Below, in pieces: positions 26,531-36,823 of a stretch of DNA of 64,000 nucleotides. Under the pieces are notes generated by a model. The model saw nothing but the letters and a program-made list of their open reading frames with translations, searched no databases and was not told where the DNA came from. This DNA comes from Crossiella cryophila. GTDB taxonomy: Bacteria > Actinomycetota > Actinomycetes > Mycobacteriales > Pseudonocardiaceae. The position numbers and the translations under genes are program-made. How positions within the stretch are numbered: position 1 is the stretch's first letter; every line of letters starts with the position of its first letter. Location: contig NZ_JACHMH010000001.1 of NCBI RefSeq assembly GCF_014204915.1, forward strand, positions 2,418,001 to 2,482,000, given 5' to 3'.

Positions 26531-27574
26531 GTGCGATTTGACGACATCTACCTGCGTGGCACCGGATCCTGGCTGCCGCCAAGACGAACGCTGGCCGAGG
26601 CGGTGGCCGCGGGGGAGTGCCCGGCGATGCTGCCCGAGCGCACCGGCATGGACGCGGTGGCGGTCTCGGCTGGGGAGTCCGCGCCGGAGATGGCCGTGCT
26701 GGCCGCGCGGACCGCGCTGGCCACCGCCGGGTCCGGACCCGGTGACGTGGACCTGATCCTGCACGCCGACACCTACTACCAGGGCCACGACGTCTGGGCG
26801 GTGGCCTCCTACATCCAGCGCGAGACCGTCGGCAACCAGTGCCCGGCGATCGAGATCCGGCAGATGTCCAACGGCGGCCTGGCCGCACTGGACCTGGCCG
26901 CCTCCTACCTGCTCGCCGGGCCGGGCCGCCGGGACGCGTTGATCACCACCGGCGACCGGTACTGCCCACCCGGTTTCGACCGCTGGCGAGCCGATCCCGG
27001 CACGCCGTACGGGGACGGCGGCGCGGCGGTGGTGCTGTCCCGGCGCGGCGGGTTCGCCCGGCTCCGCTCGCTGGCCACCTTCGCCGACCCCGAGCTGGAA
27101 CCCTCGCACCGCGGTGAGGACCCCTTCGGCGACGCGCCGCTGTCGCACCGCAGCCCGATCGGCTTCGAGGAGGTCACCAAGTCGTTCAACCGCAAGCACG
27201 GGATGTCCTTCGCGCTGCGCCGGGTGGCGCAGGGGCAGACCACCGTGCTCAAGCACGCGCTGGCCGAGGCCGAACTCGAACTCGCCGAGGCGGACTGGGT
27301 GATCCTGCCCAACTTCGGCCGGATCCGGCTGGAATCGCTGTACTACGACCGGTTCGGCATCGAGCAGGCGCGCACCGCCTGGGACTGGGGCCGCACCGTC
27401 GGCCACCTGGGCGCGGGCGATCAGTTCGCCGGTCTGGACCACCTGGTGCGCACCGGCGCGGTCAAACCGGGGGAGAAGTGCGTGCTGGTCAGTGTCGGTG
27501 CGGGATACAGCTGGGGTTGTGCTGTAGTGGAAATCGAGGAACCCATGCCCTCGCTGGGGATCAGTGGTTCTTGA
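26531..27574 (+). CDS. DpsC-like KAS III acyltransferase with Ser-His-Asp triad
   Basis: A 347-residue KAS III-fold protein that is not a normal FabH. The cysteine position is serine (IRQMSNGGLAAL, Ser113), the usual HQANxRI histidine is Asn (LPNFGRIRL), and the last motif is GHLGAGDQ, giving a Ser113-His292-Asp297 triad. The same spacing is reported for DpsC of daunorubicin (Ser118, His297, Asp302; from memory), which chooses the starter unit, and related CerJ/ChlB3-type proteins move acyl groups between carriers. Start GTG 26531 follows CGGAGG. Placed 69 bp before the type I PKS gene, it should pass the PKS product to the type II ACP or KS. Confidence 0.88.
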   Translation: MRFDDIYLRGTGSWLPPRRTLAEAVAAGECPAMLPERTGMDAVAVSAGESAPEMAVLAARTALATAGSGPGDVDLILHADTYYQGHDVWAVASYIQRETVGNQCPAIEIRQMSNGGLAALDLAASYLLAGPGRRDALITTGDRYCPPGFDRWRADPGTPYGDGGAAVVLSRRGGFARLRSLATFADPELEPSHRGEDPFGDAPLSHRSPIGFEEVTKSFNRKHGMSFALRRVAQGQTTVLKHALAEAELELAEADWVILPNFGRIRLESLYYDRFGIEQARTAWDWGRTVGHLGAGDQFAGLDHLVRTGAVKPGEKCVLVSVGAGYSWGCAVVEIEEPMPSLGISGS

Positions 27575-27643
27575 GTCGTAGTCCGGTTGGGGTTTTTACC
27601 GTCGCCACAACGGCTTTTCCCCCGCCACTGTGGAGACACCAAT

Positions 27644-33600: not shown

Positions 33601-36600
33601 GGCGGACAGCGGCACGGAGATCGACCTGGCCGAGTTCTACGCCCGGCTCGCCGACCAGGGCTACGCCTACGGCCCGGCCTTCCGCGGCCTGCGCCGGCTG
33701 GCCCGTCAGGGCACGGACCTGCTCGCCGAGGTCGAACTGCCGCCCCGCCGCGGCCTGACCGGCGAGTTCGTCCTCGACCCCGCCCTGCTGGACGCCGCCC
33801 TGCACCCGCTGCTGCTCGGCGTGACCGAGGGCACCCACCCGGCCGTGCTGCCCTTCGCCTGGACCGGCGTCACCGTGCACGCCCTCGGCGCCCGCGCGGC
33901 CAGGGTCCGCCTGCGCCTGAACACCGAGTCCGCCGACTCGGTCTCCGCCGCACTCACCCTGCTCGACCACGCCGGCGGCCTGATCGCCACGATCGACTCA
34001 CTCCTGTTGCGCCCCATCACCGCCACCGGCCTGCGCCCCGCCCGGCCGGAGGGCCTGTACCGCCTGGACTGGCCCACCATCGCGGCCACCAATCCGCCGA
34101 GCACCGCCGAAACCTGGGCCCTCCTCGGCCAGGACGAGTCACTGACCCCGGCCGCCCTCGGCCGAACGATCACCACCCACCCCGACCTCACCGCACTCGC
34201 CGCCGCGAACCCCGTCCCGGCCACGGTGCTGCTGCCCATCACCGGCGACGACACCAACCCGGTCGAGCACACCGCGACCGTGCTGCGCGAGCTGCTGACC
34301 ACCCTGCGGCACTGGCTGGGCGAACAGCGTTTCGCCGCCTCCCGCCTGGTGGTGCTGACCCGCAGGGCCATGCCCACCACCGACGCCGAACAGGTGAGCC
34401 CCTCGGCCGCCGCCGTCTGGGGCCTGCTCCGCAGTGCCCAGACCGAGAACCCGGACCGCCTGGTGCTGCTGGACACCGACGGCCGGGACTCCTCCACCCG
34501 CGCCCTGCCCGCCGCACTGGCCACCGGCGAGGCCCAGCTCGCCCTGCGCGACGGCGCGATCCAGGTGCCCAGGCTGGCCCCCGCGGTCACCGACACCCTC
34601 ACCCCACCCGCCACCGGTCACTGGCGACTGGTCCCGGTGACGCACACCGCCCCCGACGACCTCGCACTGGTGGATGTCCCCCGTGTCACGGAACCCCTTG
34701 GCACGGGCCAGGTCCGGCTCGCGGTACGTGCAGCGGGCCTGAACTTCCGCGACGTGCTGATCGCCCTGGGCATGGTGCCGGAGCGGAACGTGACCATGGG
34801 CGCCGAGGGTGCGGGCGTGGTCCTGGAAACCGGCCCAGGCGTCACCGACCTGGCCCCCGGCGACCGGGTGATGGGCTACTTCGACGGCGCCTTCGGCCCG
34901 GAAGCCGTTGCCGACCGCCGCCTGCTGGCCCCCATCCCGGACGGCTGGACCTTCGCCCAGGCCGCCGCCGTGCCCCTGGTGTACCTGACCGCCTACTACG
35001 GCCTGGTCGACCTGGCCCAGCTCCAGCCCGGCGAGTCGGTCCTGATCCACGCCGCCGCCGGCGGAGTCGGTATCGCCGCGGTGCAACTGGCCCGCCACCT
35101 CGGCGCCGAGGTCTACGCCACCGCCAGCCCCGCCAAGTGGGACACCCTGCGTGCCCTCGGCATCCCCGAGGACCACATCGCCAACTCCCGCACCCTGGAC
35201 TTCCGCGACCGGTTCCGCACCGGCGTCGACGTGGTGCTCAACTCCCTCGCCGACGACTTCATCGACGCCTCCCTGACCCTGCTCACCCCCGGCGGCCGCT
35301 TCCTGGAGATGGGCAAGACCGACATCCGCGCCACCGCCGAGGTCGAGTCCGCCCACCCAGGGATCACCTACCGGGTCTTCGACCTGACCACCCTGGCCCG
35401 CACCGACGCCGACTTCCCCGGCGCCGACCCGGACCGCCTGCGCGACATCCTCGCCGAGGTCCTCACCCTCTTCGACAAGGGCGTCCTGCAACCCGCCCCC
35501 CTGACCACCTGGGACATCCGCCGCGCCAATGCGGCCTTCCGCCACCTGTCCCAGGCCAAGGGCGTCGGCAAGGTCGTCCTCACCATCCCACCCACCAGCC
35601 ACGGCACCGCCCTGATCACCGGCGGCACCGGCGTCCTGGGCGCCAGGGTGGCCCGCCACCTGGCCACCCAACACCCAGGCATCCACCTCCTGCTGGCCAG
35701 CCGCAGCGGCCCCCAGGCCCCCGGCGCCACCGAGTTGTCCACCGAACTCCACACCCTCGGCGCCAAGGTCACCATCACCCCCTGCGACCTGTCCGACCGA
35801 GCGGCCCTGGCCACCCTGCTGGCCGACATCCCACCCAGCCACCCGCTCACCGACATCGTGCACGCGGCAGGCGTCCTGGACGACGCCATGACCACCGCCC
35901 TCACCCCGGCTCAACTGGACAACGTGTTGCGCCCCAAGGCAAACGCCGCCTGGCACCTACACGAACTGACCCAGCACCTCGACCTCACCTCGTTCGTGCT
36001 CTTCTCCTCCATCGCAGGCACCAGCGGCACCCCCGGCCAGGCCAACTACGCCGCGGCCAACACCTTCCTCGACGCCCTGGCCCACCACCGCCACCGCCAA
36101 GGCCAGGTCGCCACCAGCCTCGCCTGGGGCCTGTGGTCCGAGGCGACCGGCATGACCAGCCACCTGACCCAGGCGGACCTGGATCGCATGACCCGCAACG
36201 GCTTCGTCCCCATCACCCCCGAAGCAGGCCTCACCCTCCTCGAAGCGGCCCAGTCCCTTGCCGAACCAGTAGTGATCACCACCCCCCTCGACAAGTCCGC
36301 CCTGCAAGCCCAAGCCACCACCCTCCCCACCCTCTACCGCGGCCTGGTAACCCCCACCCCCCACCCCAGAACCCATACCCCCCAACCACAATCCGAAGCC
36401 ACCCTGCCCGAACGCCTGCTCCCCCTCCCCACCCCCGACCGCAAACACCTACTCACCAACCTGGTCCGCACCCACCTGGCCGCGGTACTCGGCCACGACA
36501 CCCCCGCCGACATCACCCCCGACCACCCCTTCGACGACCTGGGCCTGGACTCCCTCACCTCGGTGGAACTCCGCAACCGCCTCAACAAGGCCACCACCCT

Positions 36601-36823
36601 CCGCCTCCCCACGGCGATCGCCTTCGAGTACCCCTCCGCCGCCGAACTGGCCGACCACCTCCTCGACCAACTCGCCATCCCCGAACCAAACCCGGACACC
36701 CCGTTGCTGGCCGCCATCGACCACCTCCGCCAACTCCTCACCGCGGCGGGGGAGTCCAAGCACCCTCTGGGGCACCTCACGGAACAGTTCGCGGATCTTC
36801 TGGAGCAGGTGCGGGCGGACTGA
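27644..36823 (+). CDS. Type I modular PKS: KSQ-AT-ACP / KS-AT-DH-ER-KR-ACP
   Basis: A 3059-residue two-module synthase. Loading module: KSQ (1-420; VDSGQSSSL, Gln158 for Cys), AT (500-800; GHSIGEL Ser598, HAFH at 698, malonyl type), ACP (Ser911). Module 1: KS (969-1395; DTACSSS Cys1139), AT (GHSQGE Ser1583, YASH at 1683, methylmalonyl type), DH (His1890, YGPAFRG, Asp2050), ER (2345-2645; [15 protein letters not shown] intact), KR (2653-2835; LDD motif, B-type) and ACP (Ser2970). The DH motif HxxxGxxxxP has Asp instead of Gly. There is no thioesterase; a helical tail ends the protein. KSQ decarboxylates malonyl to acetyl, and one full reduction with methylmalonyl predicts 2-methylbutyryl. ATG 27644 has GGAGA upstream. 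It is the last gene before a strong terminator. Confidence 0.95.

What the first reader, a model, noticed from the sequence alone, without database searches (positions are those of the whole stretch)
26531..36823. Type I PKS with KSQ loading apparently primes a type II PKS with 2-methylbutyrate
Seen: domain order KSQ-AT-ACP-KS-AT-DH-ER-KR-ACP without thioesterase; HAFH in the first AT and YASH in the second; a DpsC-like KAS III gene 69 bp upstream; KS-alpha/CLF, ACP, ActIII-type KR and didomain cyclase in the same cluster. Known: KSQ decarboxylates malonyl, YASH marks methylmalonyl, and DpsC/ChlB3-type KAS III proteins select or transfer starters. Inference: acetyl plus methylmalonyl, fully reduced, gives 2-methylbutyryl, handed to the type II ACP or KS. 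The product would be an aromatic polyketide with a sec-butyl group and a dimethylaminosugar, in the pluramycin/anthracycline area. In other systems 2-methylbutyryl primers usually come from isoleucine, so making one on a dedicated modular PKS is unusual.
Basis: partly seen in the sequence, partly recalled or inferred. Interest (0 to 1): 0.78.

Follow-up and report, generated by a model that had tools for sequence, protein, structure and literature searches.

The report
Modular PKS priming a pluramycin-type cluster
A Crossiella bacterium carries a two-module enzyme that most likely builds a small branched acid and hands it to a second enzyme set that makes aromatic rings, starting a pluramycin-type antibiotic; this logic is already published for kidamycin, but here it comes in a fused form with a testable twist.

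Summary
A 3,059-residue PKS (27644-36823, +) reads KSQ-AT(HAFH)-ACP-KS-AT(YASH)-DH-ER-KR-ACP, without thioesterase, 69 bp after a DpsC-like KAS III gene; a type II PKS lies in the same window. The arrangement recurs in two more Crossiella genomes and in Sciscionella, Prauserella and Actinomycetospora. The cluster is pluramycin-type: a free acyltransferase with the QAFH motif of HedF and Kid13, UvrA-like and ABC genes, two glycosyltransferases and a C-methyltransferase (the last and one glycosyltransferase just left of the window). Unsure: whether the primer is saturated (Kid14 has an ER, yet kidamycin bears a butenyl chain), and whether the KAS III transfers it. New here: the single fused PKS with one conventional loading AT; an ER residue hinting at a 2R primer; and a KAS III tree in which type I-linked KAS IIIs are not one lineage, Crossiella's being closest to KAS IIIs that mostly sit beside LeuA-like and ligase genes instead.

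The parts
26531..27574 (+). DpsC/HedS-like KAS III; Ser113-His292-Asp297 aligned with the DpsC triad
   Evidence: PDB 4xs7, 5wgc best, E 1e-109 or better; triad columns invariant in six relatives
27644..36823 (+). Type I PKS, 3,059 residues: KSQ-AT-ACP-KS-AT-DH-ER-KR-ACP, no thioesterase (mechanical ORF begins at 27587)
2733..3734 (+). Free-standing acyltransferase with QAFH motif (HedF / Kid13 AT1-1 signature); ORF opens at 2613, likely start 2733
   Evidence: motif meaning from PMC10646177
3759..4706 (+). Two-domain polyketide cyclase
4743..5012 (+). Type II ACP
5885..7222 (-). Chain length factor
7096..8361 (-). KS-alpha
8486..8968 (+). AHSA1-like protein, possibly a cyclase
   Evidence: role inferred
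9879..10673 (+). FabG-like ketoreductase of the type II set
11018..11833 (+). SARP-type regulator (BTAD)
13875..15688 (+). ABC transporter pair (ATPase 13875-14888, ABC-2 membrane protein 14885-15688)
15709..16893 (+). EryCIII-like glycosyltransferase (a second one lies about 1 kb left of the window)
16961..19043 (-). Sugar genes: DegT/EryC1-type aminotransferase and NAD-dependent epimerase/dehydratase family protein
20974..22479 (+). NDP-hexose 2,3-dehydratase
22544..22858 (+). ABM-type monooxygenase
22917..25205 (+). UvrA-like protein, likely self-resistance
   Evidence: compare HedH11 in PMC9040887
25256..26500 (+). Cytochrome P450, possible side-chain oxidase
   Evidence: role inferred
354..1082 (-). 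SAM methyltransferase, possibly the amino-sugar N-methyltransferase
   Evidence: role inferred

Best explanation
This is a pluramycin-type hybrid type I/type II polyketide cluster of Crossiella. The loading half of the PKS takes malonyl through its HAFH acyltransferase and KSQ decarboxylates it to acetyl. The second module adds one methylmalonyl unit, reduces and dehydrates it and probably also enoyl-reduces it, leaving a branched C5 acyl group (2-methylbutyryl, or 2-methylbutenoyl if the ER is skipped) on the last ACP. With no thioesterase, the acyl group passes to the type II PKS, either directly to KS-alpha/CLF or through the DpsC-like KAS III and/or the QAFH acyltransferase, and ends as the C2 side chain of an anthrapyran that is then glycosylated with one or two deoxy-aminosugars. 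Shown by sequence: domains, motifs, neighbourhood, recurrence. Inferred: substrates, degree of reduction, hand-over route, product.
For: Domains and motifs, with the main catalytic residues present in 6 of 6 fused PKSs aligned. Same PKS beside the KAS III in 5 of 19 relatives read, and as two proteins in Actinocorallia populi. QAFH acyltransferase: 2 of 43 homologues in other loci have the motif, both in type I-linked clusters. Same design in kidamycin, where disrupting kid13 abolished kidamycin, photokidamycin and rubiflavinone C-1 (PMC10646177). Actinomycetoquinones from another Actinomycetospora strain carry a four-carbon chain joined to the pyrone through C-3, that is a sec-butyl skeleton (PMC12503092); tying this to the PKS gene is my inference.
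Against: Kidamycin carries a butenyl chain although Kid14 has an ER, so saturation is not assured. The DH motif has Asp for Gly in 4 of 6 fused PKSs, this one included. In Actinomycetospora the loading AT lacks HAFH. QAFH is absent from the free acyltransferases of the Sciscionella and Prauserella clusters and of G030. No chemistry of this strain is known to me; the kid and hed protein sequences were not held, so no direct alignment was made.
Confidence: 0.72

Rival explanations
1. Same route, but the PKS delivers an unsaturated 2-methylbut-2-enoyl primer because the ER is skipped or inactive.
For: Kidamycin has a butenyl chain although Kid14 has an ER (PMC10646177, PMC9452638).
Against: The ER nucleotide motif is intact in 6 of 6 relatives; a P450 next door could also desaturate a saturated chain later.
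Confidence: 0.22
2. The loading module also or mainly takes ethylmalonyl, or the second module works twice, giving a longer primer as in rubiflavinone or hedamycin.
For: Kid13 is reported to load malonyl and ethylmalonyl, with AT1-1 (QAFH) helping; this cluster has a free QAFH acyltransferase. HedU is proposed to act twice.
Against: The loading AT has the ordinary malonyl motif HAFH, not the VAGH of Kid13 AT1-2; HedU has a malonyl AT, here it is YASH.
Confidence: 0.1
3. The KAS III takes 2-methylbutyryl-CoA from isoleucine (as in trioxacarcin) and the PKS makes something else or belongs to a separate pathway.
For: Trioxacarcin's 2-methylbutyryl primer comes from isoleucine through a KSIII (PMC9570651). 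KSQ and KS of this PKS resemble those of other modular PKSs more than those of most other hybrid clusters.
Against: PKS, KAS III and KS-alpha/CLF occur together in Crossiella, Sciscionella, Prauserella and Actinomycetospora in different orders; sugar, resistance and type II genes share the stretch with the PKS. The PKS has no thioesterase and no further module within the window.
Confidence: 0.06

Closest known systems
Kidamycin cluster, Kid13/Kid14 (Streptomyces sp. W2061; PMC10646177)
   Same: KSQ loading plus a methylmalonyl KS-AT-DH-ER-KR-ACP module feeding a type II PKS; QAFH acyltransferase; two glycosyltransferases
   Different: Kid13 and Kid14 are two proteins and Kid13 has two ATs (QAFH and VAGH) around KSQ; here one fused protein with a single HAFH AT and the QAFH enzyme free-standing
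Hedamycin cluster, HedT/HedU with HedS and HedF (reviews PMC9570651, PMC6560455, PMC12664062; PMC9040887)
   Same: Type I PKS primer for a type II PKS; DpsC-like HedS; free HedF acyltransferase with QAFH; UvrA-like HedH11 and ABC genes HedH6/HedH7
   Different: HedT and HedU are separate; HedU is proposed to act twice with malonyl to give a hexadienyl primer; hed has the AlkZ-like HedH4, none is in this window
DpsC, daunorubicin KAS III
   Same: Best solved-structure match over nearly the whole length, Ser-His-Asp triad kept
   Different: DpsC serves propionate priming; no type I PKS
Trioxacarcin type II PKS (PMC9570651)
   Same: 2-methylbutyryl primer and a KSIII
   Different: Primer comes from isoleucine, not from a PKS

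Membership tests
Kidamycin/hedamycin-type hybrid type I/type II cluster | KSQ loading unit and a reducing type I module beside a type II minimal PKS | tested here: met
Kidamycin/hedamycin-type hybrid type I/type II cluster | QAFH acyltransferase (HedF / Kid13 AT1-1) | tested here: met
   motif meaning from PMC10646177
Kidamycin/hedamycin-type hybrid type I/type II cluster | Two C-glycosyltransferases and amino-deoxysugar genes | tested here: inconclusive
   Two EryCIII-like glycosyltransferases, aminotransferase, 2,3-dehydratase and methyltransferases; C- versus O-linkage not tested
Kidamycin/hedamycin-type hybrid type I/type II cluster | Anthrapyran product whose C2 side chain comes from the type I PKS | not testable with these tools
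   no chemistry available for this strain
Kidamycin arrangement in the narrow sense | Loading protein AT-KSQ-AT-ACP separate from the extender module | tested here: not met
   one fused protein with one loading AT
DpsC-like priming KAS III | Ser-His-Asp triad and full-length similarity to DpsC | tested here: met
   triad from PMC12664062
DpsC-like priming KAS III | Self-acylation and transfer of the acyl group to the type II ACP | not testable with these tools
   needs an assay
Isoleucine-derived 2-methylbutyryl priming (trioxacarcin) | Primer labelled by isoleucine | not testable with these tools
   a dedicated PKS is present, which argues against it but does not test it

The most novel reading that the evidence does not exclude
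Starter supply is an exchangeable cassette around a conserved DpsC-like KAS III. In most close relatives of the Crossiella KAS III the neighbours are a LeuA-like enzyme, an acyl ligase and an ACP-acyltransferase; in Crossiella a modular type I PKS fills that place, apparently separately from the pairing in Sciscionella, Prauserella, Actinocorallia and Streptomyces. Its ER would deliver the (2R)-2-methylbutyryl primer, the mirror image of the isoleucine-derived one.
Probability: 0.25. Interest if true: 0.6.

Novelty: new member of a known kind. Interest (0 to 1): 0.42.

Why it matters
The fused, single-AT form is a simpler system than Kid13/Kid14 for asking how a modular PKS hands a primer to a type II PKS, and whether the KAS III or KS-alpha receives it. 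If the side chain stays saturated, its configuration would show where the primer came from. The pairing of one KAS III family with different starter suppliers points to a natural route for changing anthrapyran side chains.

Tried and rejected
Separate recruitment of the PKS itself: in the KSQ tree the nine hybrid KSQs need 4 label changes (2 forced by starred branches), but one clade is not rejected (p-AU 0.09). The extender-KS tree gives no support for it: hybrid KSs need a single change (support only 45/48) and one clade is not rejected (p-AU 0.18); its comparison rows were picked by similarity to the window. So only the KAS III result is claimed (p-AU 2.7e-8). The probability of the novel case was lowered from 0.3 to 0.25 when I rechecked the KS tree.

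AlkZ-type self-resistance, as in hedamycin: five AlkZ-like genes in the genome, none in the window.

Naming the strain: the scan returned Crossiella sp. S99.2 and SN42 and may leave out the window's own genome, so only the genus is claimed. PMC9415966 on Crossiella (passages) reports type I PKS clusters; the terms hedamycin, T2PKS and S99.2 do not occur in it.

Streptomyces bluensis: a PKS of 4648 residues is the best hit there, but it lies on another contig than the KAS III locus and is probably an ordinary modular PKS. Streptomyces sp. DH5 was not held.

NCBIfam: of the 10 proteins only KS-alpha passed a family cut-off (a beta-ketoacyl synthase II subfamily) among the rows shown; no sharper names. 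A second Pfam call repeated four proteins and one meaningless fragment and added nothing. Structure prediction and fold search were not used.

Prior art: paper searches. PMC10646177 was read in parts 1-4 of 5; PMC7247197, PMC12664062, PMC9570651, PMC9452638, PMC12503092, PMC6560455, PMC9040887, PMC6264292, PMC9669575 and PMC9415966 as passages. Das and Khosla 2009 (PMC2795786) is not held; what is said of direct transfer from HedU is recalled. That isoleucine gives the 2S primer, and that C-methyltransferases of the family serve vancosamine, is also recalled.
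Full report
What is there. The coordinates hold two genes. The KAS III (26531-27574, +) is followed after 69 bp by a type I PKS with likely ATG at 27644 and stop ending at 36823. Pfam and motifs give KSQ (VDSGQSSS), AT (GHSIGE, HAFH), ACP, KS (DTACSSS), AT (GHSQGE, YASH), DH, ER, KR, ACP, and no thioesterase. The type II genes lie about 16-24 kb to the left of the KAS III: acyltransferase, two-domain cyclase, ACP, CLF and KS-alpha (both minus strand), an AHSA1-like protein and a FabG-like KR. 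Between them are a SARP regulator, an ABC pair, a glycosyltransferase, an aminotransferase, a 2,3-dehydratase, an ABM monooxygenase, a UvrA-like protein and a P450. Within 4.2 kb left of the window come a second EryCIII-like glycosyltransferase, a nucleotidyl transferase and a C-methyltransferase.

Where it is from. A scan of named genomes with a six-sequence KAS III alignment returned Crossiella sp. S99.2 (99%) and Crossiella sp. SN42 (90%) on top, so the genus is taken to be Crossiella.

Is it real. In a 200-genome sample of the family, 45 carry a KAS III match at E 1e-60 or better. I read 36-80 kb around it in 19 of the 45. Five (two Crossiella, Sciscionella marina, Prauserella shujinwangii, Actinomycetospora sp. 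NBRC 106378; names) hold the PKS beside it, each in one open frame of 3,021-3,171 residues. ACP1 of Sciscionella and of Actinomycetospora was seen only in the protein alignment. KS-alpha and CLF are in the stretch read in 4 of the 5; in SN42 the contig begins in the UvrA gene and an 83% identical acyltransferase lies on another contig. A sixth genome, G030, has a PKS of 1,973 residues without a separate KSQ. Of 178 confirmed named hits the best 80 were kept; six show the domain set within 10 kb: the five genomes above and Actinocorallia populi, where it is split into open frames of 1,001 and 1,985 residues. Streptomyces sp. DH5 and S. bluensis show a KSQ-AT-ACP frame and a following KS where the loci end.

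Motifs across relatives. In the alignment of six fused PKSs the KSQ glutamine, both AT serines, both ACP serines, the KS cysteine and histidines, the KR Lys, Ser, Tyr and Asn, and the ER nucleotide motif are present in 6 of 6. YASH is in 6 of 6; HAFH in the loading AT in 5 of 6 (not Actinomycetospora). The DH motif reads HxxxDxxxxP in 4 of 6, this one included, and HxxxGxxxxP in 2. ER position 52' is Val in four and Leu in two, never Tyr. PMC6264292 (passages) says Tyr52' goes with a 2S and Val52' (occasionally Ala or Phe) with a 2R methyl branch, and that EryER4 Y52'V gave 2R. Val52' here lies 90 residues before the nucleotide motif, where the paper places it. Against this, the other three marker positions (Leu46', Ile47', Pro53') are of the 2S kind, and V52'Y in RapER13 changed nothing, so the 2R prediction is moderate.

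How it most likely works. Malonyl is loaded and decarboxylated to acetyl, extended once with methylmalonyl, reduced, dehydrated and probably enoyl-reduced; the branched C5 acyl on the last ACP primes the type II PKS. Kidamycin is the model: a KSQ loading protein (Kid13) and a methylmalonyl-type DH-ER-KR module (Kid14) are reported to feed the type II PKS; disrupting kid13 removed kidamycin, photokidamycin and rubiflavinone C-1, while the methylmalonyl origin is proposed there from the AT motif (PMC10646177). Kidamycin's side chain is a butenyl although Kid14 has an ER, so saturation here is not assured. Actinomycetoquinones, from an Actinomycetospora strain (WMMD-1143) other than NBRC 106378, are anthraquinone-gamma-pyrones whose four-carbon chain joins the pyrone through C-3 (PMC12503092, passages), a heavily oxidised sec-butyl skeleton. 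This fits the Actinomycetospora PKS, but the paper gives no gene cluster in the passages seen and the link is mine. Who hands the primer over is open: KS-alpha directly (recalled for hedamycin), the KAS III (DpsC is reported to self-acylate and pass acyl groups to its ACP; PMC12664062), or the QAFH acyltransferase.

What kind of cluster. PMC10646177 calls QAFH a unique motif shared by HedF and Kid13 AT1-1. The free acyltransferase here has it. Of 43 homologues found in the loci read, 2 have it, Crossiella S99.2 and Actinocorallia populi, both type I-linked; but the Sciscionella and Prauserella genomes (each present twice among the 43) and G030 have other motifs. UvrA-like and ABC genes match hed counterparts by description (PMC9040887, passages). 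With two glycosyltransferases, a pluramycin-type cluster is the best filing. It differs from both models: one fused protein, one HAFH loading AT with a free QAFH enzyme, and no AlkZ-type gene in the window.

Evolution. In a tree of 48 KAS IIIs (the window and 47 loci, thinned from the window and 79 loci), the nine type I-linked ones are not one clade; holding them together is rejected, p-AU 2.7e-8. Three of the nine (Actinocorallia, Actinomycetospora, Sciscionella) have long branches that the program flags as unsure. Crossiella and Actinomycetospora fall on the side of a starred split with the LeuA-linked and Lentzea KAS IIIs, the other five on the far side. Outside Crossiella, 31 of 33 loci with KAS III identity of 62% or more carry a LeuA-like gene near it. 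Over the 80 loci 33 carry it, 31 of those with an AMP-ligase homologue too; neither has a match in the window plus 20 kb upstream at E 1e-20. The domain names rest on Pfam for one locus, L074, the rest on similarity to it. So KAS IIIs of one family appear with at least two starter sources. The active-site Ser and His-Asp pattern is not special to type I-linked ones: 77 of 80 show the Ser pattern (3 did not match it) and 80 of 80 the His-Asp pattern. For the PKS itself the KSQ tree hints at separate recruitment, the KS tree does not, and neither test is significant.

Verdict. Observation confirmed. Worth following: the fused form, the 2R prediction, and the exchange of starter suppliers around the KAS III.

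Noticed in passing
L074:7012-18228 and the other LeuA-bearing loci (33 of 80 in all): Beside a KAS III about 62-68% identical to Crossiella's lie a LeuA-like enzyme, an AMP ligase and an ACP-acyltransferase, which look like another way of supplying a type II primer. In L074 an AlkZ-like glycosylase and an epoxide hydrolase are there too. One paper search for this gave no paper with the term isopropylmalate synthase among its seven.
   Followed up: partly
L145 (Actinomycetospora sp. NBRC 106378): Has the fused PKS, and the genus makes actinomycetoquinones with a sec-butyl carbon skeleton on the pyrone (PMC12503092): a possible gene-to-compound link nobody has tested as far as I saw.
   Followed up: partly
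window:1122-2702 (-) and 37047-38606 (+): Two TAP-like secreted-type alpha/beta hydrolases flank the cluster; a homologue of the first also turns up near many related KAS IIIs. Role unknown.
   Followed up: no
window:33311-33340: DH motif HxxxDxxxxP instead of HxxxGxxxxP, shared with Actinomycetospora but not with Sciscionella or Prauserella.
   Followed up: partly
window:58286-62766: Outside the cluster, a fusion of an AMP-ligase and an aldehyde-dehydrogenase-like domain is followed by a thiamine-diphosphate enzyme gene overlapping it by 4 bp.
   Followed up: no
G030 (L068, L069): Another genome of the family has KAS III and type II genes next to a 1,973-residue type I PKS with KS, AT, DH, ER and KR matches but no separate KSQ, perhaps a third way to make a primer.
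   Followed up: no
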